Shown here: positions 3,260 through 26,162 of the stretch, piece by piece
Position numbering within the stretch: position 1 is the first letter of the stretch
Layout: every line of letters starts with the position of its first letter
NCBI GenBank assembly: GCA_963971535.1
Contig: OZ020589.1
Span: forward strand, 92,941,182 to 93,005,181
Source of the DNA: Notolepis coatsorum
Taxonomy: Eukaryota > Chordata > Actinopteri > Aulopiformes > Paralepididae
DNA length: 64,000 bases
Direction: 5' to 3'
Translations under genes and position numbers: made by a program
The notes under the pieces: model-generated
What the model saw: only the letters and a program-made list of their open reading frames with translations
Told to the model about the DNA's origin: nothing
Databases searched by the model: none

Positions 3260-3354
3260 ATTGCCCTACTCCTCACAACGGACATTGAGTAGTGGACAAG
3301 ACGGTTAATCTGTCTCTGCTTATCTAATTAGGTGCGGACTAATTAGGAGGCGGC

Positions 3355-7049: not shown

Positions 7050-7348
7050 TGTGAGGATTGGCTCGTTCCCCGCCACACGCTCCTTCAAGGTACTGTGTTG
7101 ATTGGTGCATTCCCCGCCACACGCTTCTGGAGCGATTACCAATTCCATCACGCACCTGTCGTAGTTTGTGATTAGCGCTCCAGAGGCTTCATATACTGGG
7201 ACCTTCTTTCAATCGTTGTTGGGTCGTTTTGAATACTACTGCTTCTGCCAGCCTTCCCCCCGTTGTTGTGCCTCATCTACTTTCCCTCCAGGACATCTTT
7301 GGATCGCCGCTGGTGAATATCTTGATCATCCGTTTGGAGCTGCGCCTC
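7050..7348 (+). repeat. Gypsy 5' LTR, first part (interrupted)
   Basis: Begins TGTGAGGATTGG and matches 35786-36084 almost base for base. It stops at CGCCTC (7343-7348), the left TSD of the palindromic element. The LTR resumes after the second CGCCTC at 26157-26162 with GTTGCCCG, as in the uninterrupted 3' LTR (CGCCTTGTTGCCCG at 36079-36092). Confidence 0.9.
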
Positions 7349-7650
7349 AGAGAGAGAGGTGGTATGCACCACCTGTCTCATTATGCAAAACACGCCCATT
7401 TTAGTTTGATTGATTGTAGCCGGAATTTGGAGCGTTCTGATTGGTCGAGAGGTTTAAGGGGGCGGGACTTAGGTGTATGTCATACCTTATAAGGGCATAT
7501 ATCAAAGTTTGATGGATTGTAGCCACGCCCCCTTTTTTAGATGATTTATGACCCCCTAGGGCTTCTCTGATTGGTCTAGGATGTAAGGAGGCAGGACATC
7601 CGGTTTTGAGGGCGGGACATCCGGTTTTCGGAAGGGGAGGAGTTTTCAGA
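7349..7650 (+). promoter_or_regulatory. Left terminal control block of the palindromic element
   Basis: Within 300 bp of the tip there are: the tip repeat AGAGAGAGAGG; a short hairpin GGTGGT-ATGC-ACCACC; inverted CCAAT boxes (ATTGG at 7440 and 7570); a GC box GGGGGCGGGAC (7458-7468); a CArg-type SRF site CCTTATAAGG (7485-7494); and two near-identical 20-bp units with the ETS-like core ACATCCGG, about 22 bp apart (7588-7629). The motifs are seen directly; their role as a viral enhancer or replication origin is inference. The same block lies inverted at 25850-26156. Confidence 0.45.
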
Positions 7651-7884
7651 TTTTTTTCAAAATAAAAGCTTTATTTTTTTCAAAAAAAAAAAGTCCTTCA
7701 AAATAAAAGATTCAATTTTTTTTAGATTCAAAAGTTTTTTTTATTTTCAGATTGTATGTATTCCATGGTTTTCACAATATGTATTTCTGTATTTCCAAAA
7801 GTTTTCAGAATATATCTTCACAATTAAGTTTTACAAGGTTGAATACATTATGTGTATTCCAAAGTCTTAAGAATTTGTGTATTC

Positions 7885-8104
7885 CAAATGCTAAATGTAA
7901 AATATAATGTGTGTTTTCTTCAGAAAGTGCATTTATTTCAAATGTGTGTGTGTTTTCTTAATATCAAATGCTAAATGTAAAATACAATGTGTGTTTTCTT
8001 CAGAAAGTGCATTTATTTCAAATGTGTGTGTGTTTTCTTAATGCCAAAAGCCAAATGTAAAATACAATGTGTGTTTTCTTCAGAAAGTGCATTTATTTCA
8101 AATG
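7885..8104 (+). repeat. 80-bp tandem repeat, about 2.7 copies (left arm)
   Basis: Copies are in phase at 7891, 7971 and 8051 (CTAAATGTAA or CCAAATGTAA), each followed by a conserved GTGTTTTCTTCAGAAAGTGC block. The reading frames across it are open only because of the repeat; I do not call a gene. The mirror copy is at about 25390-25610. Confidence 0.85.
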
Positions 8105-9239
8105 GTGAGTGTATCTTAAGAAAGTGCATTTTCTTCCAAGTGATGTTTTGTATCTTAAGAAATACCCTCTCTCTATCTGTTTGCTGTTGGTGTGTGTCTC
8201 CACTCTGTAGGCTGTGTGTTCTCTCAAATGTCTCTCAGTAGACTGAATATTTCTCCCTCTGTCAAACTGCAGCTTCTCTGAAAATTCTGATAGTGACAAA
8301 CCCCGTAGATGTCATACGAGGCTGGTGAAAGACTAGGACCAATGAGATGACTCAAAACCATCTGCCAAAAGCAGATTTATGACTCTGCGACTTCCCGTTT
8401 CTGTAGAAAAACGGCCCCCAAGGTGTCTGTGTGTGTTTTCTTAATGCCAGATGCCAAATGTCACAATCTTTAGATAAGTGTATTCCAAATTACAAATGTA
8501 ATGTGTCTAATGTGTTTAAGCAAAAGTCTAAATAAATGTAAAATAATTTTTTTGTATTCCAAATTACAAATGTATGTATGTATATTAGTTTCATGGATAA
8601 AGACATAATCTTTATACACTTGTGTTTAAGCAAAAAGAAAATTACAAATGTAATTTGTAAAATTAAAAGTGCACCATTACATTAGCATGCATGGGTCTAG
8701 GGTTTGAATTCTTTGAATTCTAGATTCTTTAAAAAGGTTGCATTACAGTGTTTTATATTATGCACATTAATTATTTTAGAGTTATTATTAAAAGAGTTGG
8801 GCTGAAAATATAAAGTACAGAAAAGATCTATGTGTGTCTGTGAGGTGTGTGTCTCTGATCGGGGGTGTGAACAGGGCTCTCTTAGGTGCTAAAACACAGC
8901 ATGGGAGGCGTGAAGATTAGGGGACAACTCAATACACATTTACAGTCATCATTCAAATGGTTTATATCTTTGTAACATGTACAAGTAATGTACAACATTA
9001 TACTCATAGCATATTTTAGTTCACACATTGTTCACATGTTTTCACACATATTTTAAAAGATTTCCCCATAAACAGGCATATGTCCTAATAAACTAACCTA
9101 CACTTTGATGAATATTGTTACACCGCTGACAGAGATGTATTATAATTATAATTTGGATAAAAACGTCAACTAATTGACTAAATGTAAAAGTAATACCAAC
9201 TAATTGACAGTTTGGGTGGTGATTCTTATTTTCTTATTT
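8105..9239 (+). other. AT-rich arm DNA without a supported gene
   Basis: Non-coding in appearance, with many short direct repeats of the type AAATTACAAATGTA (about 8470-8660). The same sequence recurs inverted in the right arm at about 24260-25390. No gene, RNA or known repeat family recognised. Confidence 0.5.
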
Positions 9240-9665
9240 CGTAAAACTAAAATTAAAAGGCTACAGATCATAGAAAAACGTATGTCTTGTTTACATCAGA
9301 GTCCCCCTTTTTTCAATACATCCAGACATTTAGGACATAGCAGATTTACAAATACAACACTGTTTGTGAAAACAGTCCTGAAAATATATGTCCAAGCTGT
9401 TTTAACTGTTTCAACCATCTTTAATTAAGACTTATTTTGGATATAGATCACTTCAAGGCCTGAATGTCCATACACTGTAGCAATGGTAAGCATGCATTTT
9501 CAGGTCAACTTCCCTTACCAACATGCACATCTAACCCCTCTTTTAATGTCACAGTAACCTGAAATAGCACAGAGTGTGGGGAAAAGGCCTTATTCAAAAT
9601 AAAAAACTTTGAAACTGTACCCATTCTGCAATCTGTTAATAAACTTTTCAATCAATCAATCAATA
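9240..9665. repeat. L2 3'-end fragments within the left arm
   Basis: Two pieces. About 9270-9425 matches, on the minus strand, the 3' UTR motif of the intact L2s in this window (GGGGGACTCTGATGTAAAC). About 9590-9665 is a plus-strand L2 tail (ACCCATTCTGCAATCTGTTA then AATCAATCAATCAATA). Both are present at mirrored positions 23829-24250, so they entered before the palindrome formed or were copied by conversion. Confidence 0.75.
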
Positions 9666-9782
9666 TATGATTAGGTATAAAAGTTAAAGACATGATAGAT
9701 TAGAGTTGGGGTGAAAATATAAAGTGCTGTAAATATCTGTCTTTTTGAGGATCTGGGTGTGAACAGGGGGGGGTGTTAGGTG

Positions 9783-11130
9783 TCAAAACGCTGCAAGGAG
9801 GTGTGAAAGATTAGGGACCAAACAACCTCTGTATATTTGCTTGTAATACTCTGCATTTACTCTAAACAAAACTAATAAAGTCTGTATTACAGCTAACTCT
9901 TTAAGTTTCAATAGTTTGGATTTAATACATAATTCATTGGTATGTTCTCTTGAATCTACATTGTGAACTATTCTTACTGCTCTCTTCTGTAATATAAATA
10001 AGGGCTTTATGTTGCTTTCATACGTGTTACCCCACACTTCCACACAGTAACTCAAATATGGTAGGATGAGTGAACAATATAATATTTGCATAGAATTATA
10101 ATCAAGCACATTCTTTGCCTTGTTCAAAACAAAACACTCTTGGCTACCTTATTTTTTTATGTACATTATATGTGGCTTCCATGTCATTTTCTCATCCAAC
10201 ATAATCCTTGGATTCCTTTGTCAATACATAATGCCACATTGTCCTTCTTTCGATTAGTAAATATCATACATTTCGTTTTTCCAAATTTAGGGATAGCTTA
10301 TTGTTATTAAACCATATCTTAAGTTTACACATTTCATTTGTAATTTGGAATACAGAAATTTGTATCGACAGCAAATAAAACAAATTGCAATATGTTTGAC
10401 ACTTCACATATATCATTAATATATAAAATAAAAAAGTGTGGGCCCCAGGACCGAACCTTGAGGGACAACACATTCAATATAGTTGGCTCCACCTCAAATG
10501 TAATGTTCAGAAAATGTGTATTTTTAGGTCTTTGCTGTTGCTGTCATTTTGACCATCTAGCTAAAAGAGGGGTCAATGATCGCAAATGAATACATGGTAA
10601 AAAGGTCTACCAATTGTCAGGCAAGAATGCACTTCTAATATGTTACACACTAGTAATACAGCCATAATATTTCCAAATAGTATTGTTCTAAACAGTGTAT
10701 TACAAATACAGTGTATTTGTAGCTAATGTAGACAATAGGCAATTATATAATTGTCACCTGAAAACATATTGTTGTCTATTTTCAACATAGCCACTTAACC
10801 AGTTAATCGCCACCCCTCTCACACCGCATGTTTGTAATTTAGAAATTAAAATGTGATGATCAATCGTATCAAATGCTTTTTTTAAGTGTATTTCCTATTC
10901 CTATTGTGTAATTCCTTTCATCTACGGTTGTGGTTATTTCTTCATATATATTCATTAAGGCTAAGGCTGTTGATCGATTTGCCCTGAATCCATACCGACT
11001 CTCACTCAGAATCTAAGAATCTAAGAATCATGAATCAAGAATCTTGGAAAATTGTGAAAGCAAAGACACTGGCCTGTAGTTGGTAAAACTGTGTTTGTCC
11101 CCAGATTTAAATAGAGGAATAATAATTATT
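9783..11130 (-). pseudogene. Degraded LINE reverse transcriptase in the left arm
   Basis: Recognisable on the minus strand in several frames: palm remnants (VPQGSVLGP in broken frame near 10440-10470, a KAFDTIDHHILI-like stretch near 10860, NNNKLSLNLEK near 10290) and a 114-codon C-terminal piece at 9783-10127 (YCSLILPYLSYCVEVWGN, LFILQKRAVRI) typical of Jockey/L2-type LINEs. Stops and frameshifts exclude function. The mirror copy lies at about 22370-23710 (+). Its presence in both arms shows that the element or its progenitor had taken up host LINE DNA. Confidence 0.8.
10520..10740 (+). repeat. Diverged 200-bp direct repeat, copy 1 (left arm)
   Basis: Shares a series of blocks in the same order with 11670-11890: CTAGCTAAAAGAGGGG, ACCAATTGTCA, a TGTTACA block, TTGTTCTAAA.CAGTGTAT and TAGCTAA.TGTA. 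The copies differ at many positions, so this is an old duplication inside the arm. Mirror copies occur near 22740-22960 and 17630-17815. Confidence 0.7.
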
Positions 11131-11669
11131 TGAAAAAATTAATAGAATTATCCCACAGGGATAAGGTTTATCTTATCTAAGTGTGCTACTGTTTAATAGT
11201 GTATAGGGACATAGTGTGTAATAGTGTAATATTGTCATAGGGTAGTCCTAGTATGTAATAGTGTTATATAGTGTAATATTGTGCAAATGTGTAATAATGC
11301 AATAGTGTAATAGTGTGTAATAGTGTAATAGTTTAATACATTATTTTGTTTCCTCAAACAGACATGTTCATGTAACTTGCATCAATCCAGTTTTCAGTCA
11401 CCTTTTCAGTCACCTTTCAGCCAACTGTGTTGAAGATTTGTAGCATGGTCCTAGGATAAACATAAATTATAGACATCTAAAATCATGAAACAGGTCGATT
11501 TTTAGTAGATTTAATCAATAGTCAGAAGGATAATGCTATTTTAGTCAAGGGTTGAGATATATCACCCCCATGACACATCCCTATTTTGTAAGACAAACAG
11601 TTTGATGTTGTAATTTCAGTGATTAGGCTCGCTTGCCTGTATACATTTTTATCAATCTGCTTTTGGTGT

Positions 11670-11890
11670 ATTTTTTAGGTGTTTGGTTATGTTTTTATCT
11701 GTCATTTTGATCAGGTCTAGCTAAAAGAGGGGATTTATGATCTCAAATGACTAAGGTTTACCAATTGTCATGCTTGAATTTCAACTCTAACGTGTTACAT
11801 AAGTAAAACAGACTATTTGCAAACAACATTGTTCTAAAACAGTGTATCTACTACAGTGTGTATTTATATTTTAGCTAAATGTAAAAAAAC
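11670..11890 (+). repeat. Diverged 200-bp direct repeat, copy 2 (left arm)
   Basis: Second copy of the block at 10520-10740. The adjoining motif AAACATAAATTATA with CATGAAAC also occurs twice (about 11459 and 11946), so the duplication may be wider. No coding content. Confidence 0.65.
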
Positions 11891-13049
11891 ATGAGAACAC
11901 AATCCGAGTGAATTCTGAATTTGATGTTTATTGGTTGAATGTCAAGGATAAACATAAATTATAAAACATCTAAAACCATGAAACTGACTGATGCACTTAA
12001 AACAGACATGTCAACATAGTTTTTTTTACCTGTTTGCATAATGATAAGGTATAAAAACAAAATGCTTCAATACAAATGTATTTTTTAGAAGTTTAGTAAT
12101 ATCAAGCCCCAAATGTATTTTCTTTAACCTGATCTAAGGTACATTATACAACTCATTTATGAATTACTTTGCAACGTCTAGTTTTTTAGCCCCCCAGCGT
12201 TTTATGCTCTCAATATTATGGATATGCATTAAATCCTACACACGATAGGAAATATTCAATCAACTCAAAGATGATGGTTCTAAGGTAAATAAAATGTAAT
12301 TCAGTCAACATAGTTAGTGTATAGTATGGCTAACATGTATGAAAGTTGTTGATACAATATTATAATTCATAATTCAATTCAAAATAATTACCGGTGAGGT
12401 TGTTTGATTTTTGTCCCGATGATTGAAGGAAATTCATTTTTAAGAACTATTTAGCATGAAATATCTTAAAGATGTATTTTTATTCATTATAACCATGAAA
12501 ATAATGCAATGTTAGGTTTTACCGTGATTTTAGTGTTCACAGATAGGAATGTATCATTCACATTCTATTATCCAAATGTACTCTGAACAGACTTGTGAAG
12601 TTAGAGGTAATGTATTATTCACATTCAATTATCCAAATGTACTCTGAGTCAAATTTACTCTGTGAAATGTACTCTGCGAAATGTACTCTGCGAAAGTTCC
12701 CTGCAATATGCAGGGTTTTACATAGACTACTAGCAAAAACAATTCATATTGTTTCAGTGATGGCCTGGTTGATAGCTACATTGTCAAGTTGTCTTATTTT
12801 TTATTCTTATTTCATTGTATAGTGAATCCAGGGGTATAGTGGAGCGATTATATTTTGTTTTTATAATATTTTACAATATCAAAACATGTCTTATGTTCTT
12901 ATATATCTACAAGTCTTATGTAGAATGCTGTAAAAAGAGTCCTACTAATATATTTCACTTAAAAAAAAACTTGTACAGAAAGATAAATATCTGACCCCCG
13001 GAGCCCTGTCAGAGTGTATACAGGTTCTGTACAGTATACCATATGCAAA
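11891..13049 (+). other. AT-rich arm DNA with a TGTACTCTG cluster
   Basis: No supported gene. Between about 12540 and 12705 the motif TGTACTCTG or a close variant recurs five to six times, partly as GAAATGTACTCTGC. A GTG-started frame (12595-12822) ends in a hydrophobic stretch and is equally open in the right arm, but lacks any other support. Confidence 0.5.
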
Positions 13050-13120
13050 TCCCATATGGTCTAGCGGTAATGATGCCCTGCCTTCATCAGGGAGACGCGG
13101 GTTCGACTCCTGCTATGGGA
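13050..13120 (+). tRNA. tRNA-Glu(TTC)-like gene, left arm
   Basis: 71 nt that fold as a cloverleaf: perfect 7-bp acceptor stem (TCCCATA/TATGGGA), D arm with TGGTCTAGCGG (A box), anticodon stem CCCTG/CAGGG with loop CCTTCAT giving TTC, and a T arm GCGGG-TTCGACT-CCTGC containing the B box GGTTCGACTCC. No CCA is encoded. A T7 Pol III terminator begins about 8 nt downstream. The 5' end matches canonical eukaryotic tRNA-Glu, whereas the anticodon arm looks diverged, so this is not a simple recent copy of a host gene. The identical sequence is in the right arm. Whether it is transcribed or charged is unknown. Confidence 0.88.
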
Positions 13121-13254
13121 ATAACACTTTTTTTCTATACATAACAAATGTGTTGGTATGCTTTATTGTAACTGTTTGACCGTTTTTAGTGCAACACTAC
13201 TGTCACCGGCATTTAAGAAGGGTCTAGGGTTATCTCCTCAACACTAGGTTGGAG

Positions 13255-13452
13255 ATGCATTTAAGTCCTATTGATAGTTTTTTTCCATACTTTTGCAAGG
13301 ATATGTATGACTGTGTTTATGGTATTTCTAGCTTATTCATGATTGTGATACTTCTTATTGAATTGTTTAAAGAATATGTGTTTAACCAGCGTATAGTAGG
13401 ACCTTACAAATATGATTTGATCCCAACAAGTGGTGACATTTCGAAGTCTTAA
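13255..13452 (+). CDS. Small hypothetical protein with one membrane-like segment (left arm)
   Basis: About 65 codons from the ATG at 13255; the longer frame uses a TTG. The middle holds a hydrophobic run (LFMIVILLIELF), so a single-pass membrane protein is possible. No family recognised. The right-arm copy differs by one residue (S to Y before LFMIV). It lies between the tRNA gene and the end of the 153-aa gene, convergent with the latter. It may simply be a chance ORF. Confidence 0.25.
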   Translation: MHLSPIDSFFPYFCKDMYDCVYGISSLFMIVILLIELFKEYVFNQRIVGPYKYDLIPTSGDISKS

Positions 13453-13597
13453 AGGGATCACATTCACATAGCTGAATATAGTTGCACAACTGGATAATAT
13501 TTGTATTATTACTAGGATGAACTTAAAATCATTCAAAACAATTATTACATAACAATTATTACAATGAAACGCAGATGGGTATATTATAAAATATTTA

Positions 13598-14059
13598 TTA
13601 AAGAATATTACAAATCATGCTGCAACCTTTTTGATCAATAATATAAGCGTGCATAACATCAATAATGTGATTAATATCTAAAGTTTCTAAACACTTATGA
13701 TTTTTCAGCTTAAAAGCCGTAACATCCACTATTACGGTGTATAAACACAACAGGTGTGCTCTGTTAAAATGACCAATCATATGATCTAAAATAGTAACTA
13801 AGCCGTTTTCAGATAGAAGACTTTCATCCTCTGAGAGTGTCTCTATCATATATTGCCAATTATTTAACAACCCTTTATCTCTCACCAGCTTCAACATATT
13901 TTCAAAAAGCCTTAAGCGCAGGCTATTGACATTCCCGGTTACAGTGTACAAGTGGGCATCGTTGACTTTATTAGCTATAGCATGCTTTAAAAGCAGTGCG
14001 ATATCATAGTTTATAGAGGTCGTAATACAGCTGGTAGTCCTACTGAAGAAATTCCCCAT
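13598..14059 (-). CDS. 153-aa hypothetical virus-like protein with N-myristoylation signal
   Basis: The start ATG at 14059 is followed by MGNFFSR, which fits the MGxxxS N-myristoylation consensus. The rest looks mostly alpha-helical (for example LRLRLFENMLKLVRDKGL and HLLCLYTVIVDV). The stop codon overlaps an AATAAA poly(A) signal. TATA-like elements lie about 25-45 bp upstream of the ATG (14080-14105, read on the minus strand). The gene straddles the inner edge of the left arm: its first 39 codons or so are in the unique centre, the rest in the repeat. The all-helical, small, membrane-anchored build recalls apoptosis regulators (Bcl-2/E1B-19K or death-fold proteins), but I see no diagnostic motif and make no assignment. 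Confidence 0.6.
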   Translation of the reverse strand: MGNFFSRTTSCITTSINYDIALLLKHAIANKVNDAHLYTVTGNVNSLRLRLFENMLKLVRDKGLLNNWQYMIETLSEDESLLSENGLVTILDHMIGHFNRAHLLCLYTVIVDVTAFKLKNHKCLETLDINHIIDVMHAYIIDQKGCSMICNIL

Positions 14060-14227
14060 TTCCTATGCTACGATCCTGATACTTTAAACAACAGCTGATA
14101 TAGGGTGTGTATTTCTGTATGGGGGTGGGGATGAAGCTTCGGACGGGTCTGTATGACGCTATAGATGTGTAGGATAGAAACCTATATATTTAGAGAGTTC
14201 CCTCTTAGAGAGACCCTAGAAAGAAAA
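14060..14227. promoter_or_regulatory. Divergent compact promoter region
   Basis: 168 bp separate the ATGs of two divergent genes. On the minus strand CTATATCAG and TTTAAAG precede the 153-aa gene; on the plus strand CTATATATTTAG (about 14186) precedes the ATG at 14228 by about 40 bp. Such short TATA-to-ATG distances are typical of compact DNA-virus genes. Activity is inferred. Confidence 0.5.
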
Positions 14228-14833
14228 ATGGCGAGCAGTCTAGCTACATCTACTATACGCACGTCAGCCCTAGTAGCGCATTTTAAGGCAGATTTACTTG
14301 CACCATCCAAATTTGGTAGCGTGTTTTATAAAGAGATATGGCCCCTCAGGGATGGGGTACTAGGATTCTGTTATGATGTTAAATTTGAGAGAGTTGTCTT
14401 CTACAAGACCTCCTTGGAGAATTTCCAGGGTGTTGGAAGAAGATCTGAGATAGACCTATCGGAGACGGAATTTTGGAAAATGAAAAAAGCTTCGTATGAG
14501 GCTATGGATGGATTAGTGGGTAGAACGCTTAAGGATGGGGTGATATTCACCCTGGTAATAAGCTCGATAGACTACGGGTATGTGTATTACGGGCGGATAT
14601 CTATAAAAAGTACTCTGGCTTTTGGTGTAGAGACTAATCTAACCATCTTCTCAAGGTTCCTTAATACAAGTCATGAGTATATCCTTTTCTCAGTACCGGT
14701 ACCGGCCTGGTTAGAATGTCTACGGACTTGCGGATTGGTTACTAACGAAGGGGTTAAGGTGAGGACAGACCTGGTTCATTTAAAAAGACGTCTATTCCCA
14801 TACACCGAATCAGAGGAGATGGAGTGCGTTTGA
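14228..14833 (+). CDS. 201-aa hypothetical virus-like protein
   Basis: I choose the ATG at 14228 (AAAAATGGCG, strong initiation context) over the upstream ATG at 14165, which lies before the TATA-like box. The product (MASSLATSTIRTS...) is a mixed alpha/beta-looking globular protein with many aromatic residues (GFCYDVKFERVVFYK, DYGYVYYGRISIK) and an acidic end (ESEEMECV). No signal peptide or membrane segment. I looked for an LxCxE retinoblastoma-binding motif and found none (closest is LECLR). No family recognised. It lies wholly in the unique centre of the palindrome, head to head with the 153-aa gene and upstream of the 212-aa gene on the same strand. Confidence 0.6.
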   Translation: MASSLATSTIRTSALVAHFKADLLAPSKFGSVFYKEIWPLRDGVLGFCYDVKFERVVFYKTSLENFQGVGRRSEIDLSETEFWKMKKASYEAMDGLVGRTLKDGVIFTLVISSIDYGYVYYGRISIKSTLAFGVETNLTIFSRFLNTSHEYILFSVPVPAWLECLRTCGLVTNEGVKVRTDLVHLKRRLFPYTESEEMECV

Positions 14834-14925
14834 CCCTCATCGAAGGGGCGGAGGATGGGGCGTGTCAACCCTAAATCCTCCTTTAAAAAGACTTACATTG
14901 CATTTTGTACTTTTAGATAGCAATC
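14834..14925 (+). promoter_or_regulatory. Promoter of the 212-aa gene
   Basis: A TATA-like CTTTAAAAAG at about 14881 lies 40-45 bp upstream of the ATG at 14926. A G-rich patch (GGGGCGGAGGATGGGGCG, near 14845) could bind Sp1-type factors. Spacing is the same as at the other two genes of the centre. Confidence 0.45.
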
Positions 14926-15564
14926 ATGGCTTTGTATGTGGCACATGAGGCTGATCCTGCTAACTCTGCATTGGATACATTAGATTGCCTGTCTCCACTA
15001 AACACGCCTGATGATGTTGAGACACTACCCGCTGGCGGTTATAGATTCATGGACCCTCCTTCACAGCAACCAAACTTTGCTTGGTATGAGGCTGATCCTT
15101 CTAAGAATGGATTGGATACACTAGATAGCCTGTTTCCACTATACGCTCCAGACGAGGAAGTTGAGACATTACCCGTACCCCTGTATGGTTCAACTAAAAC
15201 TCCTTCACTGCAAAGCCTCCTAGACAGCTTTAGGATTAGATACAGCCCTCTTACAACGATTTGGGAGACTTCGTCGCCGGATTCATCACCGCCAAACCCC
15301 GTCCGGCATATGGATGTCCCTCCTAATAGCCCCTGTTACACCCCTCCTACATCAGAATCTGATGTATTCCACCCTGATCCTGAAGAAATACCTATCGTTG
15401 ATGTAGCTAACATAGCATCAACACTGCCATCCCCAACCGGGGGTACGGTTAAGAGACTGTGTCCTACTAGAAGAAAAACCTTCCACTTCCCAATCAAAGT
15501 ATCTACTCTTAAAGCCTTAGTGACAGCCGCGGAGCTGTCAGGACAATTGTACATCGATGGGTAA
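14926..15564 (+). CDS. 212-aa acidic, proline-rich protein with internal duplication
   Basis: ATG in good context (A at -3, G at +4). The N-terminal half contains two diverged copies of one module: EADPANSALDTLDCLSPL...DDVETLP (about residues 8-36) and EADPSKNGLDTLDSLFPL...EEVETLP (about 54-83). Then comes a Ser/Pro/Thr-rich middle, and a basic C-terminus (KRLCPTRRKTFHFPIK). An acidic, hydrophobic repeated module plus a basic tail resembles a transcriptional activator, but that is inference. Polinton-type adintoviruses and adenoviruses carry small acidic oncoproteins; no LxCxE is present here. The stop codon TAA is at 15562-15564, exactly at the start of the right arm, so the natural C-terminus may have been cut off by palindrome formation. 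Confidence 0.6.
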   Translation: MALYVAHEADPANSALDTLDCLSPLNTPDDVETLPAGGYRFMDPPSQQPNFAWYEADPSKNGLDTLDSLFPLYAPDEEVETLPVPLYGSTKTPSLQSLLDSFRIRYSPLTTIWETSSPDSSPPNPVRHMDVPPNSPCYTPPTSESDVFHPDPEEIPIVDVANIASTLPSPTGGTVKRLCPTRRKTFHFPIKVSTLKALVTAAELSGQLYIDG

Positions 15565-15905: not shown

Positions 15906-16050
15906 TAAATATTTTATAATATACCCATCTGCGTTTCATTGTAATAATTGTTATGTAATAATTGTTTTGAATGATTTTAAGTTCATCCTAGTAATAATAC
16001 AAATATTATCCAGTTGTGCAACTATATTCAGCTATGTGAATGTGATCCCT

Positions 16051-16248: not shown

Positions 16249-16382
16249 CTCCAACCTAGTGTTGAGGAGATAACCCTAGACCCTTCTTAAATGCCGGTGA
16301 CAGTAGTGTTGCACTAAAAATGGTCAAACAGTTACAATAAAGCATACCAACACATTTGTTATGTATAGAAAAAAAGTGTTAT

Positions 16383-16453: not shown

Positions 16454-18091
16454 TTTGCATATGGTATACTGTACAGAACCTGTATACACTCTGACAGGGC
16501 TCCGGGGGTCAGATATTTATCTTTCTGTACAAGTTTTTTTTTAAGTGAAATATATTAGTAGGACTCTTTTTACAGCATTCTACATAAGACTTGTAGATAT
16601 ATAAGAACATAAGACATGTTTTGATATTGTAAAATATTATAAAAACAAAATATAATCGCTCCACTATACCCCTGGATTCACTATACAATGAAATAAGAAT
16701 AAAAAATAAGACAACTCGACAATGTAGCTATCAACCAGGCCATCACTGAAACAATATGAATTGTTTTTGCTAGTAGTCTATGTAAAACCCTGCATATTGC
16801 AGGGAACTTTCGCAGAGTACATTTCGCAGAGTACATTTCACAGAGTAAATTTGACTCAGAGTACATTTGGATAATTGAATGTGAATAATACATTACCTCT
16901 AACTTCACAAGTCTGTTCAGAGTACATTTGGATAATAGAATGTGAATGATACATTCCTATCTGTGAACACTAAAATCACGGTAAAACCTAACATTGCATT
17001 ATTTTCATGGTTATAATGAATAAAAATACATCTTTAAGATATTTCATGCTAAATAGTTCTTAAAAATGAATTTCCTTCAATCATCGGGACAAAAATCAAA
17101 CAACCTCGCCGGTAATTATTTTGAATTGAATTATGAATTATAATATTGTATCAACAACTTTCATACATGTTAGCCATACTATACACTAACTATGTTGACT
17201 GAATTACATTTTATTTACCTTAGAACCATCATCTTTGAGTTGATTGAATATTTCCTATCGTGTGTAGGATTTAATGCATATCCATAATATTGAGAGCATA
17301 AAACGCTGGGGGGCTAAAAAACTAGACGTTGCAAAGTAATTCATAAATGAGTTGTATAATGTACCTTAGATCAGGTTAAAGAAAATACATTTGGGGCTTG
17401 ATATTACTAAACTTCTAAAAAATACATTTGTATTGAAGCATTTTGTTTTTATACCTTATCATTATGCAAACAGGTAAAAAAAACTATGTTGACATGTCTG
17501 TTTTAAGTGCATCAGTCAGTTTCATGGTTTTAGATGTTTTATAATTTATGTTTATCCTTGACATTCAACCAATAAACATCAAATTCAGAATTCACTCGGA
17601 TTGTGTTCTCATGTTTTTTTTACATTTAGCTAAAATATAAATACACACTGTAGTAGATACACTGTTTTAGAACAATGTTGTTTGCAAATAGTCTGTTTTA
17701 CTTATGTAACACGTTAGAGTTGAAATTCAAGCATGACAATTGGTAAACCTTAGTCATTTGAGATCATAAATCCCCTCTTTTAGCTAGACCTGATCAAAAT
17801 GACAGATAAAAACATAACCAAACACCTAAAAAATACACCAAAAGCAGATTGATAAAAATGTATACAGGCAAGCGAGCCTAATCACTGAAATTACAACATC
17901 AAACTGTTTGTCTTACAAAATAGGGATGTGTCATGGGGGTGATATATCTCAACCCTTGACTAAAATAGCATTATCCTTCTGACTATTGATTAAATCTACT
18001 AAAAATCGACCTGTTTCATGATTTTAGATGTCTATAATTTATGTTTATCCTAGGACCATGCTACAAATCTTCAACACAGTTGGCTGAAAGG

Positions 18092-18153
<62 letters not shown>

Positions 18154-18306
18154 AACTTTATTAACAGATTGTAGAATGGGTACAATACAGTACAGCTCAA
18201 TACACACAATTGTTAAGGGGATGCAGACCAGAGAAAGACTTTCGTCTTGTTTACATCAGGGTCCCCCATTTTCAATTCATCAGGACATATATGACATACA
18301 TGACAT

Positions 18307-19662
18307 CAGTGTTGTGCTAGTTACTGAAAAATAGTAACTCAGTTACTTTACTAGTTACTTCATTTCAAAGTAACTTCGTTACTGTACTAGTTACTTACAC
18401 CCAAAAGTAATGAGTTACTGTGAAAAGTAACTATTTAGTTATTTAAAAAAAAAAAAAAAAAAAAATTGCTCAAGTCCCATGCCCCATATACTCAAAATCG
18501 GTTGATCAACTTGACAGTTTCCATTCACATCACCGAACTCTGCTAAGCAATGTGGTCTAGAGCGTTTCATTATATATTCCCTCCCCGCTGTATGTATATT
18601 TCTCTCCCACCCACCCACCCCCTCCTAATGTACAGTCCCCTCCCCATCATATGTATATACTCTGTCAGGATCTAGGGGTAACAGTACTGTATATTTGAAT
18701 ACCGCTTATGTCACAAATGTATCAGTACTAAATACCTATATGTCCCTATGCCATAAATGTCATGTTGTGTATGTCATAAATGTCTATATGAATTGAAAAT
18801 GGGGGACCCTGATGGAAACAAGACAAACGTCTTTCTCAGGTCTGCATCCCCTTAACAATTGTATGTATTGAGCCGTACTGTATTGTACCCATTCTGCAAT
18901 CTGTTAAATAAAGTTTTCATTCATTCATTCATTCATTCATCCATTCATTAATTCATTCATAACCATCTTGCAGCGTTGTTTAAGATATCAATCAAAGCAT
19001 TGCAACGTTAGAATAGTTAGGATATCAATTGTGCATGAAAGGACTATATTTATATTGTTTGATTAGTATTATGAGATTCCCTGTCAGATTTCGTACAGTC
19101 AAAATCCGTTGATCTTGAGTTTCAGTGAACACATTGCACTCACCGTCACCAGTCTGCGGTGGTCGAGATGTAACGTTAGTCCAGTTGACTCCAGCAGCCC
19201 TTCAAACATGTTCTTTATCTCGTTTCCATGTTGTATATTAATTATCTCTCCAAGTAGTTGCTAAATGGTTTGTTAGTTCGTTATTATTACTGCGTTCTTA
19301 TTATGTAGATTCATAGCGAGCGTCCTCTTGTTTACTGTAGAGAGCGTCTATTTCTTTCAGAACGTCAGTGGCCAATCAGAAGTGCGAAAACAGAATGAGG
19401 CTACGGAAAGAAATAATAATAATAATAATACTTCGTTTTATATAGCGCCTTTCAGTCTACAGTAAACAAAACAAACGCAGGCGAAATAAGGACACTCGCT
19501 ATGAATCTACATAAAAAGAACGCAGTAACGAACTAACAAACCATTCAGTAACGTAAGTAGCGTTACTGAATTTCAAAAGTAATGCGTTAGAGTACTAGTT
19601 GCGGCAAAAAGTAACTTCGTTTCTGTAACGCGTTACTTTGTAACGCGTTAGTCCCAACACTG
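18307..19662. mobile_element. Non-autonomous hAT transposon nested in the L2
   Basis: Begins CAGTGTTG and ends CAACACTG, flanked by a perfect 8-bp TSD CATGACAT (18299-18306 and 19663-19670), as expected for hAT. Sub-terminal regions are rich in AGTAACT/CGTTAC motifs. It contains a plus-strand L2 tail (about 18790-18960, ending in ATTC repeats), a (TAA)n tract near 19422, and no transposase ORF. Confidence 0.9.
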
Positions 19663-20045
19663 CATGACATACAGATAGTCAGTACTGCTACATCTATACA
19701 TTTATGACATACTAGATTTGCAAATACAGTACTGTTTGTGATACAGAAGGAGTCAAGAAAAGGGAGTATATACATTTGATGTAGAAACTGTACATTGGAG
19801 GAGGTTGTGTGGGGGGGGGGTTGGGTACATTGGGATATTGACAACCATACTGGGTAATTTACATTGGAGGTGGTTGGGGGGGGGGGGGGGGGGGGCGGGG
19901 GGCACACTGTATAAACAAGTAATACTGTATATTGAGGGGGGGGGGGGAGGAGACACTGTACAAACAAACAAAATTGTACATTGAACTATTGACAAAACCA
20001 TACTAGGTAAATGACTGTACATTGGAGGGGGTTGGGTTAGGATAT

Positions 20046-22070
20046 TTACAGGGGCCAGTGTTGAATTGCAGTCTCCCGTAGGTGTCCCTTGAGAGAGGTT
20101 TTGAAAGTGGGTAGTGATCCACATTCCTTTACAGCTTTGGGTAGGGCGTTCCACATTGATGTGGCATAATTGCGAAACGTGTTTAGTCCCTTATTTGAGC
20201 CGAATCTGGGTTTAACATGATTTGTGGAGCTCCCTCTGGTGTTGTGATCGTGGTATTCACTGACCTTTGGGAAGTATTTTGACATGTACATGGGTACCTT
20301 GGTCGTGTAGTGTATCTTGTAGACCAGGCCCATTGCAAGTTGTTGTACTCTGTCGTCTACTCTAAGCCATCCTAGGTTGTCAAAGTGGGCAGGGGTGAGG
20401 TGGGTTCTAGGAGTAAGGTCAAGCAGTAGTCTGACCAGTTTGTTTTGAGATGTTTGTAATTTTGTTTTTAGCGCCTTTGAGGTGCTTTGGTACCATGAGG
20501 TGCAAGCATAGTCGTAGTACCCCTGAATGAGTGCTCCTGCCAGAGTCTTCAGGGTGTTCTTGTTTACCAGAGAGGAGATCCGGTACAAGAATCGAGTTCG
20601 TTGGTTGACTTTTTTTATTACATTGGATGCCATTTTGTCACAGGAGAGATTAGCCTCTAGGATGGAACCCAGGTAGGTAATTTCATCTTTCCTTGTGACA
20701 ATATTGTCACCCACTGTAACTGAGAAGCCGTCGGTCTTGCTGAGTTTGTTATTTGAACCGAAGAGAATGGACTCTGTTTTGCCCATGTGTAATGATAGTT
20801 TGTTATCAGCGAGCCATATGCAGATTCTGCCTAGTTCCGAGCTGAGGGTTTTTTCAACCTGTAACTTGTTCTTGTCAGAGACCAGCAGGGCTGAGTCGTC
20901 CGCAAACAGGAACAAGTTGCAGTCACAAGCTGACGACATGTCATTTGCATAAATTAGGAACAGTAGCGGTCCTAGTATGCTTCCTTGTGGAACACCACAG
21001 CTCACTGTGAGGGGGGGGGATAGGGTACCGTTTACCTCCACCATCTGTTCCCTCCCCTCAAGGTAGGATTGCATCCAGCTCACTGATAGACTATCAAAAC
21101 CAATTGCTTTTAGCTTGTCAATCAGAATGGAGTGATTGACCGTGTCAAAGGCCTTTTGTAGGTCCAGCATGACCATGCCGCAGTATTTGCCTGCATCCAC
21201 CTCTTGTTTGATGTGGTCATTCAAATAGAGAAGGCATGTGTCAGTGGAGTGGGATGTTCTGAAGCCAGATTGGAATTCGTAGATTAGATTTTTTTCCGCT
21301 AGGTACTTTTCGACCTGTTCGTAGACTATTTTTTCCATGACTTTCGAGATGGAGGTGAGAATAGAAACAGGGCGGTAGTTGCCTGGGTCTAATTTGCTGC
21401 CCTTTTTGTGCAGAGGGGTCACCCTCGCAATTTTGAAGTCCTTGGGGACGTGTCCCTGTTTTATGGAGAGGTTTATTATGTGTGTGATGATTGGGGTGAT
21501 GGCGGCTGCTGAGTCTCTGAGGAATTTGGAGGGGATGTTGTCATGGCCAGTGGCCTTGTTAGGTTGGAGGGCGCTCAGTTTATTGAGTACCTCATCTGTT
21601 GTTACCATTTCCAGCTTGAAGTCGTCCTTGCGGACCCCTAGGTTTTTGTAGTAAGCTACTATGTGTTCTACCCCATAAAGCCCTGAGTGGGAGGGTAGTT
21701 TGTTTACCAGTGTTGTGGCTATGTTTGTGAAGAAAATGTTTAAGTAATTGGCTACATCCAGCTTGTCTGTGATGAGCGTGTTGTCCGTTTTTATGTTTAT
21801 GTTTGAGAATCTGGTTTTAAGTTTTTTACTGCATCCTAGTTGATTATTGAGTAATTTCCAAAGTTCACGCGGTTTGTTTTTGTTTTCCTCAGTTTTGTCA
21901 TTGATGAAATTCTTTTTTGCAGTTTTGATCATGGAGTTTACGTCGTTTCTTAGTCTGTTTCTTTCTAGTTTGAGTTCAGTCACATGGGCTTGGAGTTCAC
22001 TGCTTGTGCTTTTAGTAAGCTTTGACTGACTTTTACGAAACTCAGAGCATTTTTTGTCTCTGGTTTTCAT
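20046..22070 (-). CDS. L2-like LINE reverse transcriptase (endonuclease missing)
   Basis: 674 codons. RT blocks in order: IARVTPLHKKGSKLDPGNYR, FQSGFRTSHSTDTCLL, VMLDLQKAFDTVNHSIL, CGVPQGSILGPLLFLIYAND and the catalytic LFLFADDSALL. The C-terminal region has the thumb-like stretch ending near NALPKAVK. The frame is intact, but the element lacks the N-terminal endonuclease, so it cannot transpose alone. A diverged copy with frameshifts lies at 27065-28447. Confidence 0.93.
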   Translation of the reverse strand: MKTRDKKCSEFRKSQSKLTKSTSSELQAHVTELKLERNRLRNDVNSMIKTAKKNFINDKTEENKNKPRELWKLLNNQLGCSKKLKTRFSNINIKTDNTLITDKLDVANYLNIFFTNIATTLVNKLPSHSGLYGVEHIVAYYKNLGVRKDDFKLEMVTTDEVLNKLSALQPNKATGHDNIPSKFLRDSAAAITPIITHIINLSIKQGHVPKDFKIARVTPLHKKGSKLDPGNYRPVSILTSISKVMEKIVYEQVEKYLAEKNLIYEFQSGFRTSHSTDTCLLYLNDHIKQEVDAGKYCGMVMLDLQKAFDTVNHSILIDKLKAIGFDSLSVSWMQSYLEGREQMVEVNGTLSPPLTVSCGVPQGSILGPLLFLIYANDMSSACDCNLFLFADDSALLVSDKNKLQVEKTLSSELGRICIWLADNKLSLHMGKTESILFGSNNKLSKTDGFSVTVGDNIVTRKDEITYLGSILEANLSCDKMASNVIKKVNQRTRFLYRISSLVNKNTLKTLAGALIQGYYDYACTSWYQSTSKALKTKLQTSQNKLVRLLLDLTPRTHLTPAHFDNLGWLRVDDRVQQLAMGLVYKIHYTTKVPMYMSKYFPKVSEYHDHNTRGSSTNHVKPRFGSNKGLNTFRNYATSMWNALPKAVKECGSLPTFKTSLKGHLRETAIQHWPL

Positions 22071-22369
22071 AGCGGCCAGGTGACTGAAAAGGTGACTGAA
22101 AACTGGATTGATGCAAGTTACATGAACATGTCTGTTTGAGGAAACAAAATAATGTATTAAACTATTACACTATTACACACTATTACACTATTGCATTATT
22201 ACACATTTGCACAATATTACACTATATAACACTATTACATACTAGGACTACCCTATGACAATATTACACTATTACACACTATGTCCCTATACACTATTAA
22301 ACAGTAGCACACTTAGATAAGATAAACCTTATCCCTGTGGGATAATTCTATTAATTTTTTCAAATAATT

Positions 22370-23710
22370 ATTATTCCTCTATTTAAATCTGGGGACAAAC
22401 ACAGTTTTACCAACTACAGGCCAGTGTCTTTGCTTTCACAATTTTCCAAGATTCTTGATTCATGATTCTTAGATTCTTAGATTCTGAGTGAGAGTCGGTA
22501 TGGATTCAGGGCAAATCGATCAACAGCCTTAGCCTTAATGAATATATATGAAGAAATAACCACAACCGTAGATGAAAGGAATTACACAATAGGAATAGGA
22601 AATACACTTAAAAAAAGCATTTGATACGATTGATCATCACATTTTAATTTCTAAATTACAAACATGCGGTGTGAGAGGGGTGGCGATTAACTGGTTAAGT
22701 GGCTATCTTGAAAATAGACAACAATATGTTTTCAGGTGACAATTATATAATTGCCTATTGTCTACATTAGCTACAAATACACTGTATTTGTAATACACTG
22801 TTTAGAACAATACTATTTGGAAATATTATGGCTGTATTACTAGTGTGTAACATATTAGAAGTGCATTCTTGCCTGACAATTGGTAGACCTTTTTACCATG
22901 TATTCATTTGTGATCATTGACCCCTCTTTTAGCTAGATGGTCAAAATGACAGCAACAGCAAAGACCTAAAAATACACATTTTCTGAACATTACATTTGAG
23001 GTGGAGCCAACTATATTGAATGTGTTGTCCCTCAAGGTTCGGTCCTGGGGCCCACACTTTTTTATTTTATATATTAATGATATATGTGAAGTGTCAAACA
23101 TATTGCAATTTGTTTTATTTGCTGTCGATACAAATTTCTGTATTCCAAATTACAAATGAAATGTGTAAACTTAAGATATGGTTTAATAACAATAAGCTAT
23201 CCCTAAATTTGGAAAAACGAAATGTATGATATTTACTAATCGAAAGAAGGACAATGTGGCATTATGTATTGACAAAGGAATCCAAGGATTATGTTGGATG
23301 AGAAAATGACATGGAAGCCACATATAATGTACATAAAAAAATAAGGTAGCCAAGAGTGTTTTGTTTTGAACAAGGCAAAGAATGTGCTTGATTATAATTC
23401 TATGCAAATATTATATTGTTCACTCATCCTACCATATTTGAGTTACTGTGTGGAAGTGTGGGGTAACACGTATGAAAGCAACATAAAGCCCTTATTTATA
23501 TTACAGAAGAGAGCAGTAAGAATAGTTCACAATGTAGATTCAAGAGAACATACCAATGAATTATGTATTAAATCCAAACTATTGAAACTTAAAGAGTTAG
23601 CTGTAATACAGACTTTATTAGTTTTGTTTAGAGTAAATGCAGAGTATTACAAGCAAATATACAGAGGTTGTTTGGTCCCTAATCTTTCACACCTCCTTGC
23701 AGCGTTTTGA
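22370..23710 (+). pseudogene. Degraded LINE reverse transcriptase in the right arm
   Basis: Mirror of 9783-11130, with the same broken motifs, including the C-terminal 114-codon piece at 23366-23710. It is older than the L2 at 18093-22077, since it is shared by both arms. Confidence 0.8.
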
Positions 23711-23828
23711 CACCTAACACCCCCCCCTGTTCACACCCAGATCCTCAAAAAGACAGATATTTACAGCACTTTATATTTTCACCCCAACTCTAATCTATCA
23801 TGTCTTTAACTTTTATACCTAATCATAT

Positions 23829-24250
23829 ATTGATTGATTGATTGAAAAGTTTATTAACAGATTGCAGAATGGGTACAGTTTCAAAGTTTTTTATTTTGAA
23901 TAAGGCCTTTTCCCCACACTCTGTGCTATTTCAGGTTACTGTGACATTAAAAGAGGGGTTAGATGTGCATGTTGGTAAGGGAAGTTGACCTGAAAATGCA
24001 TGCTTACCATTGCTACAGTGTATGGACATTCAGGCCTTGAAGTGATCTATATCCAAAATAAGTCTTAATTAAAGATGGTTGAAACAGTTAAAACAGCTTG
24101 GACATATATTTTCAGGACTGTTTTCACAAACAGTGTTGTATTTGTAAATCTGCTATGTCCTAAATGTCTGGATGTATTGAAAAAAGGGGGACTCTGATGT
24201 AAACAAGACATACGTTTTTCTATGATCTGTAGCCTTTTAATTTTAGTTTT
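23829..24250. repeat. L2 3'-end fragments in the right arm
   Basis: Mirror of 9240-9665: a TTGATTGATTGA tail with AACAGATTGCAGAATGGG at about 23829-23877, and the GGGGGACTCTGATGTAAAC motif near 24187. Confidence 0.75.
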
Positions 24251-25389
24251 ACGAAATAAGAAAATAAGAATCACCACCCAAACTGTCAATTAGTTGGTAT
24301 TACTTTTACATTTAGTCAATTAGTTGACGTTTTTATCCAAATTATAATTATAATACATCTCTGTCAGCGGTGTAACAATATTCATCAAAGTGTAGGTTAG
24401 TTTATTAGGACATATGCCTGTTTATGGGGAAATCTTTTAAAATATGTGTGAAAACATGTGAACAATGTGTGAACTAAAATATGCTATGAGTATAATGTTG
24501 TACATTACTTGTACATGTTACAAAGATATAAACCATTTGAATGATGACTGTAAATGTGTATTGAGTTGTCCCCTAATCTTCACGCCTCCCATGCTGTGTT
24601 TTAGCACCTAAGAGAGCCCTGTTCACACCCCCGATCAGAGACACACACCTCACAGACACACATAGATCTTTTCTGTACTTTATATTTTCAGCCCAACTCT
24701 TTTAATAATAACTCTAAAATAATTAATGTGCATAATATAAAACACTGTAATGCAACCTTTTTAAAGAATCTAGAATTCAAAGAATTCAAACCCTAGACCC
24801 ATGCATGCTAATGTAATGGTGCACTTTTAATTTTACAAATTACATTTGTAATTTTCTTTTTGCTTAAACACAAGTGTATAAAGATTATGTCTTATCCATG
24901 AAACTAATATACATACATACATTTGTAATTTGGAATACAAAAAATTTATTTTACATTTATTTAGACTTTTGCTTAAACACATTAGACACATTACATTTGT
25001 AATTTGGAATACACTTATCTAAAGATTGTGACATTTGGCATCTGGCATTAAGAAAACACACACAGACACCTTGGGGGCTGTTTTTCTACAGAAACGGGAA
25101 GTCGCAGAGTCATAAATCTGCTTTTGGCAGATGGTTTTGAGTCATCTCATTGGTCCTAGTCTTTCACCAGCCTCGTATGACATCTACGGGGTTTGTCACT
25201 ATCAGAATTTTCAGAGAAGCTGCAGTTAGACAGAGGGAGAAATATTCAGTCTACTGAGAGACATTTGAGAGAACACACAGCCTACAGAGTGGAGACACAC
25301 ACCAACAGCAAACAGATAGAGAGAGGGTATTTCTTAAGATACAAAACATCACTTGGAAGAAAATGCACTTTCTTAAGATACACTCACCA

Positions 25390-25610
25390 TTTGAAATAAA
25401 TGCACTTTCTGAAGAAAACACACATTGTATTTTACATTTGGCTTTTGGCATTAAGAAAACACACACACATTTGAAATAAATGCACTTTCTGAAGAAAACA
25501 CACATTGTATTTTACATTTAGCATTTGATATTAAGAAAACACACACACATTTGAAATAAATGCACTTTCTGAAGAAAACACACATTGTATTTTACATTTA
25601 GCATTTGGAA
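25390..25610 (-). repeat. 80-bp tandem repeat (right arm)
   Basis: Mirror of 7885-8104, three copies of the GCACTTTCTGAAGAAAACAC block at 80-bp spacing. Confidence 0.85.
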
Positions 25611-25849
25611 TACACAAATTCTTAAGACTTTGGAATACACATAATGTATTCAACCTTGTAAAACTTAATTGTGAAGATATATTCTGAAAACTTTTGGAAA
25701 TACAGAAATACATATTGTGAAAACCATGGAATACATACAATCTGAAAATAAAAAAAACGTTTGAATCTAAAAAAATTTGAATATTTTATTTTGAAGGACT
25801 TTTTTTTTTTTGAAAAAAATAAAACTTTTATTTTGAAAAAAATCTGAAA

Positions 25850-26156
25850 ACTCCTCCCCTTCCGAAAACCGGATGTCCCGCCCTCAAAACCGGATGTCCC
25901 GCCTCCTTACATCCTAGACCAATCAGAGAAGCCCTAGGGGGTCATAAATCATCAAAAAAAGGGGGCGTGGCTACAATCCATCAAACTTTGATATATGCCC
26001 TTATAAGGTATGACATACACCTAAGTCCCACCCCCTTAAACCTCTCGACCAATCAGAACGCTCCAAATTCCAAAAAGGGGCGTTGCTACAATCAATCAAA
26101 TTAAACAGGGCGTGTTTTGCATAATGAGACAGGTGGTGCATACCACCTCTCTCTCT
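25850..26156 (-). promoter_or_regulatory. Right terminal control block of the palindromic element
   Basis: Inverted copy of the left tip: paired ACCGGATGTCCCGCC units, CCAAT boxes (CCAATCAG), the CArG site CCTTATAAGG, GC boxes, the GGTGGTGCATACCACC hairpin, and the terminal CCTCTCTCTCT next to the TSD CGCCTC. Confidence 0.45.
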
Positions 26157-26162
26157 CGCCTC

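What the first reader, a model, noticed from the sequence alone, without database searches (positions are those of the whole stretch)
7343..26162. A giant palindromic element with Polinton-type ends and a 6-bp TSD inside a young Gypsy LTR
The left flank ends CTG-CGCCTC, then AGAGAGAGAGG; the right end is the exact complement, then CGCCTC-GTTGCCCG. The 3' Gypsy LTR shows the unbroken site. A 6-bp TSD with AG...CT and 2-bp terminal tandem repeats fits Polinton/Maverick integration and protein-primed slide-back. Yet the arms are about 6.6 kb, and no polB, integrase or capsid gene is present. This looks like a fold-back, trans-mobilised virus derivative, comparable to a defective genome, that still integrates. 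Because it sits in an LTR almost identical to its partner, it moved recently.
Basis: partly seen in the sequence, partly recalled or inferred. Interest (0 to 1): 0.95.

Follow-up and report, generated by a model that had tools for sequence, protein, structure and literature searches.

The report
Palindromic satellite of a Maverick
A giant mirror-image DNA element that carries none of the tested enzymes for moving itself appears to ride on a virus-like Maverick transposon in the same genome, and seems to rebuild one half of itself from the other by folding back.

Summary
Observation confirmed. Window 7349-26156 is one inserted unit: 6.6-kb arms 99.6% identical, a 1.6-kb loop, (AG)5//(CT)5 ends, 6-bp TSD CGCCTC; a LINE later entered the right arm. 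It is not a one-off: nine further copies, fetched as end pairs, all have inverted arms and matching 6-bp TSDs (one TSD lies in a CA repeat and is uninformative; one copy is internally deleted, one complex). The genome also holds apparently intact ~15.5-kb Mavericks (polB, integrase, adenain-like protease) whose ends are up to 97% identical to the palindromes' ends. The palindromes match none of 11 other helper ORF pieces tested, but carry a homologue (42%) of one accessory gene, two further ORFs and a conserved tRNA-Glu-like gene. Inner arms differ 0.02-0.2% within six of seven copies measured, against 0.5-3.3% between copies. Five copies have re-set fold-back points, two with 6-7-bp microhomology; one 3.65-kb copy has re-copied a 51-bp end. 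Best reading: a helper-dependent Maverick satellite whose palindrome is rebuilt by snap-back copying. Mobilisation in trans and packaging are inferred. One palindromic Polinton insertion was noted before (Chinook gh1, 2008). New variant of a known kind.

The parts
7343..7348 (.). left copy of 6-bp target-site duplication CGCCTC
26157..26162 (.). right copy of 6-bp target-site duplication CGCCTC
7349..26156 (+). whole palindromic element, 18808 bp including the LINE insertion (about 14.8 kb without it)
7349..7358 (+). terminal (AG)5 repeat, Maverick-type end motif
   Evidence: motif class in PMC8097293 section 7
26147..26156 (-). terminal (CT)5 repeat
7349..13942 (+). left arm
15561..18092 (-). 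right arm, inner part
22078..26156 (-). right arm, outer part
7349..8033 (+). outer part of the arm: patchy blocks, mostly 90-96% identical, to the Maverick inverted repeat in L033/L034
18093..22077 (-). later LINE insertion in the right arm only, (TTGA)n tail, RT ORF 20046-22070
13943..15560 (+). unique loop (1618 bp)
13598..14059 (-). ORF153; its first 39 codons lie in the loop, the rest in the arm; a 5'-truncated second copy lies at 15606-15905 (+)
14165..14833 (+). ORF222, homologue of the Maverick accessory 228-aa ORF (42% identity)
14926..15564 (+). ORF212, no homologue found; stop codon at the loop/arm border
13050..13121 (+). tRNA-Glu(TTC)-like gene in the left arm
16382..16453 (-). 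tRNA-Glu(TTC)-like gene in the right arm
7050..7348 (+). Gypsy 5' LTR, left of the insertion (homology resumes 26163-26170)
35786..36092 (+). Gypsy 3' LTR with the unbroken site at 36079-36084

Best explanation
It is a non-autonomous, helper-dependent satellite of a Maverick/Polinton (adintovirus-type element) resident in the same genome. Shown: shared terminal sequences, shared TSD size, none of the other helper ORF pieces tested, one accessory gene in common, many copies, apparently intact Mavericks present. Inferred: the helper's protein-primed PolB copies it from the AG-repeat ends, and the helper's integrase inserts it with 6-bp TSDs. Shown: in most copies measured the inner arms are near-identical within the copy but differ between copies, and fold-back points have been re-set, two of them at 6-7-bp microhomologies. 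Inferred: during replication a displaced strand, or a broken or paused nascent strand, snaps back on itself and copies one arm from the other, so that many newly inserted copies are fresh palindromes. The outermost few hundred bp seem to be exchanged with other satellites or Mavericks, which would explain why they alone differ between arms in several copies. Inferred and weaker: doubling an about 8-kb unit to about 14.5 kb brings it near the helper's 15.5 kb, which may suit packaging.
For: TSDs: all ten units read (window plus nine) have matching 6-bp TSDs, all different; the one of C35 lies in a CA repeat and says little. The 3.65-kb copy C30 also has one. All nine fetched pairs have inverted arms: five with arms of about 5.9-6.5 kb (C43, C21a, C45, C24, C21b), C23 likewise with a 5-kb insert in one arm, C6 8.2 kb, C35 complex, C8 internally deleted. 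ORF153 arm-part search: 116 of 150 scored places (707 candidates) have an inverted partner within 6 kb; 50 of 68 pairs are spaced 2017-2067 bp. Helper: polB, and ORFs over the Pfam cut-off for rve integrase and Peptidase_C5, between inverted repeats of about 1.05 kb, TSD GGCCTC; of six more Mavericks sampled at their ends five have matching 6-bp TSDs (three directly, two after a 2-bp AG register shift by eye), the sixth lacked a found right end. Nearest Maverick end to each satellite end: 82-97% over up to 345 bp. 11 of 12 helper ORF pieces find nothing in W or in the 20 loci of the nine copies; the twelfth is the ORF222 homologue. Inner-arm differences within copies: C24 1/6056, C45 4/5961, C21a 6/6021, C43 6/6025, C6 8/7779, W 12/6194, against 0.54-3.27% between copies, median 1.9%. 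Re-folded copies L018, L054, L055, L056, L057 with loops of 288, 597, 711, 1330 and 290 bp; shared word TTCATTT in L057, about 6 bp in L018. C30/L053: a truncated arm plus a re-copied 51-bp end, 4-bp shared word read by eye. Timing for W: its host LTR pair differs at 2 of 307, yet the outer 400 bp of the arms differ at 11 sites, so most of those differences should predate insertion (binomial P = 3e-8 for the excess over the inner arm).
Against: No mobilisation, packaging or extrachromosomal form was observed. C21b arms differ at 83 sites, so renewal is not obligatory each round; its two ends separate in the 560-bp tree but pair in the 345-bp tree. C6 (18 kb), C35 (21.6 kb) and C30 (3.65 kb) argue against a strict size rule. 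Selection on the ORFs is weak: summed pN/pS 0.66 (ORF153), 0.65 (ORF222), 0.99 (ORF212). The arm interior has no nucleotide match to the Maverick loci tested beyond stray matches of at most 39 bp, so its origin is unexplained. In the 345-bp tree the helper and satellite ends form separate groups. L054, L055 and L056 junctions are not simple, and for L054-L057 only the middles were fetched.
Confidence: 0.77

Rival explanations
1. The satellite part is right, but arm identity is kept after insertion by gene conversion between the arms in the chromosome, as in Y-chromosome palindromes (comparison recalled).
For: Within-copy identity far above between-copy identity; C21b shows a patchwork of 99.9% and 97% stretches.
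Against: W keeps a LINE, and C23 a 5-kb insert, in one arm only. The W host LTR pair differs at only 2 of 307 while the outer 400 bp of the arms differ at 11 sites, so these were not converted. Five copies have differently placed fold-back points with arms 99.3-100% identical in the stretches compared.
Confidence: 0.15
2. A defective Maverick genome: a deletion and fold-back product of the resident Maverick, without a life of its own.
For: Same kind of ends and one shared accessory gene; fold-back junctions at microhomology.
Against: Roughly 160 loci carry ORF153 (68 pairs plus 97 unpaired places, a few of which may belong together); ORF153 and ORF212 have no match better than E 0.23 in the Maverick loci tested; a conserved tRNA-like gene; arm interior not related to the Mavericks tested.
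Confidence: 0.12
3. An autonomous element of a new type whose ORF153, ORF222 and ORF212 replicate and integrate it.
For: ORF153 is open in 148 of 150 scored places and ORF222 in roughly 90 of about 150 listed rows, counted by eye; no Pfam match at E up to 10 leaves functions open.
Against: ORF222 has a homologue in a Maverick that has its own PolB and integrase; copies with stops in ORF222 are numerous; ends and TSD size equal those of Mavericks.
Confidence: 0.04
4. Assembly artefact: arms duplicated by the assembler.
For: Raw reads were not available.
Against: Ten loci with different flanks and TSDs, arm-specific insertions, and differences between arms.
Confidence: 0.02

Closest known systems
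Vertebrate Mavericks/Polintons (Barreat and Katzourakis 2021, PMC8097293; section 7 and passages read)
   Same: (AG)n//(CT)n ends, 6-bp TSD, overall size class (their mean for intact elements is 16.9 kb), and one accessory gene shared with a Maverick of this genome
   Different: None of the helper core ORF pieces tested; inverted arms of 6.6 kb where that paper gives inverted repeats of 46-1447 bp
Chinook salmon gh1 insertion: about 20 kb containing a 10-kb palindromic sequence, part of a Polinton-1 (von Schalburg 2008, PMC2584663; passages read)
   Same: Large palindromic sequence described as Polinton-related
   Different: One insertion; no family, ends, TSD, genes or helper described in the passages read; sequence identity to this family not tested
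Adenovirus-type symmetric or fold-back genomes and ITR repair (recalled, no call)
   Same: Protein-primed linear DNA, new ends copied from the other end
   Different: Recalled as laboratory variants; here it is a numerous integrated family
Adintoviruses (PMC11071296, passages read)
   Same: The helper has PolB, rve integrase and an adenovirus-like protease
   Different: The terms satellite and palindrom do not occur in that main text
Foldback/long-TIR transposons such as FB and Galileo (recalled, no call)
   Same: Very long inverted repeats
   Different: Different ends, TSD and enzymes (recalled)

Membership tests
Autonomous vertebrate Maverick/Polinton | (AG)3//(CT)3 or (AGT)2//(ACT)2 end motif | tested here: met
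   (AG)5//(CT)5 in W; the other nine copies also start with AG repeats
Autonomous vertebrate Maverick/Polinton | 6-bp target-site duplication | tested here: met
   10 of 10 units, one of them uninformative because it lies in a CA repeat
Autonomous vertebrate Maverick/Polinton | PolB, integrase, ATPase, protease and capsid genes | tested here: not met
   11 of 12 helper ORF pieces find nothing in W or in 20 loci of nine copies; the middle of polB was not tested, and the capsid ORFs are named by position only
Autonomous vertebrate Maverick/Polinton | Inverted repeats of 46-1447 bp | tested here: not met
   arms 6.6 kb; range from PMC8097293 section 7
Non-autonomous derivative mobilised by a Maverick | Termini shared with an autonomous element of the same genome | tested here: met
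   82-97% to the nearest Maverick end over up to 345 bp
Non-autonomous derivative mobilised by a Maverick | Multiple insertions with TSDs but no integrase of its own | tested here: met
Non-autonomous derivative mobilised by a Maverick | Movement in trans by helper proteins | not testable with these tools
   needs an assay
Satellite virus | Packaged in helper capsids | not testable with these tools
   only a rough size match, with exceptions
Defective genome of the helper | Sequence derived from the helper by deletion or rearrangement | tested here: inconclusive
   only the ends and ORF222 are related to the Maverick loci tested; arm interior, ORF153 and ORF212 are not, but only two Mavericks were read beyond polB and ends

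The most novel reading that the evidence does not exclude
A vertebrate satellite virus: a helper-dependent linear DNA that is copied by PolB, integrated by the integrase and packaged by the capsid of a living endogenous Maverick, that rebuilds a giant palindrome by snap-back copying in most rounds, and that carries accessory proteins and a Pol III tRNA-like RNA of its own. To my knowledge (recall) it would be the first satellite known for this virus-like group in animals.
Probability: 0.35. Interest if true: 0.92.

Novelty: new variant of a known kind. Interest (0 to 1): 0.82.

Why it matters
The abstract of PMC8097293 (seen in the listing) says that Maverick particles had not been observed. 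A numerous family that has Maverick ends, yet matches none of the core Maverick ORFs tested, is indirect evidence that Maverick proteins act in trans. Arm differences give a built-in clock for each insertion, and fold-back junctions record template switching. The 51-bp re-copied end in C30 hints that very little sequence is needed in cis.

Tried and rejected
Tried without gain: protein search with ORF222 (201 candidates, none at E 1e-3) and viral contigs (none); PDB sequence searches with ORF153, ORF222 and the ORF222 alignment (none); Pfam at E up to 10 with six proteins (none); PHROGs (three matches, best E 0.087, taken as chance); structure models of ORF153 (mean pLDDT 42.7) and ORF222 (32.0), too poor to search. 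ORF212 against the helper 239-aa ORF: no similarity. A recalled resemblance of ORF222 to PC4-like ssDNA-binding proteins was dropped: nothing supports it. In the tree the row hC43_p was cut at the wrong place and should be ignored. Considered and rejected: one-off fold-back, assembly artefact, ordinary long-TIR transposon.
Full report
Observation. The unit is real. Its borders are 7349-26156, the 6-bp TSD is CGCCTC (7343-7348, 26157-26162), and the ends are (AG)5 and (CT)5. Self-comparison gives arms 7349-13942 and 15561-26156, the latter split by a LINE insertion of about 4 kb with a (TTGA)n tail. Aligned arms differ at 23 substitutions and 4 gaps over 6594 bp. The unit sits in the 5' LTR of a Gypsy element; the 3' LTR shows the unbroken site with one differing base, 305/307 matching, homology ending 8 bp past the site.

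Other copies. A 293-bp end query in the window's own genome (G000, 3.42 Gb) gave 1186 candidates, 40 scored; 20 of the 40 places form 10 inverted pairs (the window included), 20 have no partner in the capped list. I fetched the nine other pairs, so this sample was chosen for having two ends, though not for having inverted arms. All nine have inverted arms. Five (C43, C21a, C45, C24, C21b) have arms of about 5.9-6.5 kb; C23 likewise, with a 5-kb insert in one arm; C6 has 8.2-kb arms with a tandem duplication present in both; C8 is internally deleted; C35 has a third arm copy. All ten units have matching 6-bp TSDs, read from the printed ends, all different; that of C35 is CACACA inside a CA repeat and says little. 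Between paired ends, seven of ten are 14.0-14.8 kb, two of them (W, C23) after subtracting later insertions; C6 is 18.0, C35 21.6, C8 8.6 kb. A search with the arm part of ORF153 scored 150 places of 707 candidates; 116 have an inverted partner within 6 kb in the union do not. The union holds 233 places: 68 pairs, 50 of them spaced 2017-2067 bp, and 97 unpaired. Two known palindromes (C43, C45) are among the unpaired because the lists are cut at 150. An end pattern occurs 289 times forward and 287 times reverse, control 0 and 0; only the first places are listed, and Maverick and satellite ends are counted together.

The helper. The genome has 141 listed matches to DNA_pol_B_2 (244 candidates, 82 scored), several in open frames of about 1400 aa. 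Around one of them (C21, 12.02 Mb; L033, L034) lie inverted repeats of about 1.05 kb, a 6-bp TSD GGCCTC, and ORFs matching rve integrase and adenovirus endoprotease above their cut-offs, with an ATPase-like ORF matching AAA and Pox_A32 models below the cut-offs. The 434-, 252-, 149- and 241-aa ORFs had no Pfam match; I take the first two for capsid proteins by position and by the published gene order (PMC8097293 section 7), not by a test. Six more Mavericks of the same polB type were sampled at their ends: five show matching 6-bp TSDs (three directly, two after shifting by one AG, by eye), and for one the right end was not found at the predicted place. The nearest of these Maverick ends to each satellite end is 82-97% identical over up to 345 bp. 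The second Maverick (C24, 62.44 Mb) has a related end on one side only in what I fetched. Of four further polB flanks of 5 kb, two showed related ends and two none.

What the satellite carries. ORF222 is homologous to the Maverick's 228-aa accessory ORF (42%, E 4e-56; alignment). It exists in at least two alleles, 55% identical. 152 matches were found in the genome (629 candidates, 150 scored); by my eye count roughly 90 of about 150 listed rows have no stop, and many others have two TAG stops (positions not compared). ORF153: 150 of 769 candidates scored, 148 without stops. Neither ORF153 nor ORF212 has a match better than E 0.23 in the Maverick loci tested. A tRNA-Glu(TTC)-like gene was found in each fetched arm that includes that region; among 17 aligned arms 1 of 72 sites varies from the window against 62 of 600 flanking sites, the flanks not being covered in full by every arm. 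None was found in the 10 Maverick loci scanned, of 16 then held. Selection on the ORFs measured among copies is weak (summed pN/pS 0.66, 0.65, 0.99 for ORF153, ORF222, ORF212), so a coding role rests mainly on the ORF222 homology and on open frames. Of 12 helper ORF pieces (polB as two pieces, its middle not fetched) 11 are found neither in W nor in the 20 loci of the nine copies; the twelfth is the ORF222 homologue.

Arm renewal. Outside the outer 400 bp, arms inside a copy differ by 1/6056 (C24), 4/5961 (C45), 6/6021 (C21a), 6/6025 (C43), 8/7779 (C6) and 12/6194 (W). The seventh copy measured, C21b, is the exception with 83 differences in all. Between copies inner arms differ by 0.54-3.27%, median 1.9%, nine copies, one arm each. 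In W, C43 and C6 the outer 400 bp hold 10-11 differences (binomial P 3e-8, 5e-9, 2e-9); C45 has a small excess (3 of 7, P 0.007); C21a and C24 have none. For W most of this excess should predate insertion, because the LTR pair that was already there differs at only 2 of 307. So the inner arms were homogenised before insertion while the ends probably came from different parents. In both end trees the two ends of one copy mostly group together; for C21b the 560-bp tree separates them and the 345-bp tree does not.

Fold-back points. The standard loop borders (13943-15560) recur at both sides in seven of nine other copies; C8 has lost one side and C35 is re-folded. Five copies have other loops: L018 (C35) 288 bp, L054 597, L055 711, L056 1330, L057 290, with arms 99.3-100% identical in the stretches compared. 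L054-L057 were picked because ORF153 or ORF222 places lay unusually spaced, and only their middles were fetched. L057 joins at a 7-bp shared word TTCATTT, L018 at about 6 bp with one base different from the window allele; L054 carries an extra 40-bp templated patch, L055 overlaps by about 15 bp, and L056 has about 700 bp without a match to the part of W compared. A search for the W-type terminus (up to one mismatch) found 8 places, four inverted pairs: W, C43, C9 (14.5 kb) and C30 (3.65 kb). C30 is a truncated arm (W arm 1-3894) whose broken end has received a copy of the outer 51 bp; TSD TTTGAC on both sides; a 4-bp shared word at the join, read by eye. This is what copying from a snapped-back or switched strand would leave.

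Literature. Search listings. Read: PMC8097293 (section 7 and passages), PMC2584663 (passages), PMC11071296 (passages). The main text of PMC8097293 has no occurrence of palindrom, nonautonomous or non-autonomous or satellite. PMC2584663 describes one Chinook insertion of about 20 kb with a 10-kb palindromic sequence, part of a Polinton-1. I found no description of a palindromic Maverick family in these searches; most subscription papers are not held, so absence from print is not shown.

Verdict. A satellite-like, trans-mobilised Maverick derivative is well supported by sequence; snap-back renewal is the best explanation of arm identity; packaging is a guess from size, with clear exceptions (3.65, 18.0 and 21.6 kb).

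Noticed in passing
window 31349-34770: 1711-bp tandem duplication (99.4%) inside the Gypsy pol region, so the element carries two RT/RNase H stretches.
   Followed up: no
window 19663-21447 and 27040-28801: Two copies of one LINE family in opposite orientation, about 97% identical; one is the insertion in the right arm.
   Followed up: partly
L018-L020 (C35:92482480-92504530): 21.6-kb copy with three arm copies and two same-strand ORF153 copies, as if a second unit had been fused before integration.
   Followed up: partly
one search list: Many ORF222 copies carry two TAG stops (positions not compared) and are still numerous, so ORF222 may be dispensable in cis.
   Followed up: no
window 13050-13121: The tRNA-Glu-like gene seems to have C where tRNAs have U33 (read by eye, rule recalled) and a T-run just after it; it may be a Pol III RNA rather than a working tRNA.
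   Followed up: no
G000:C32:57930542-57931664: An ORF222 relative (69%) lies about 200 bp outside the start of a satellite-type end; possible nested insertion.
   Followed up: no
G000:C6:100332535-100362491: Five end motifs in 30 kb, four on one strand, suggesting tandem or nested copies.
   Followed up: no
window 46010-50056: Gypsy-type polyprotein frame with a SCAN domain match (Pfam).
   Followed up: no
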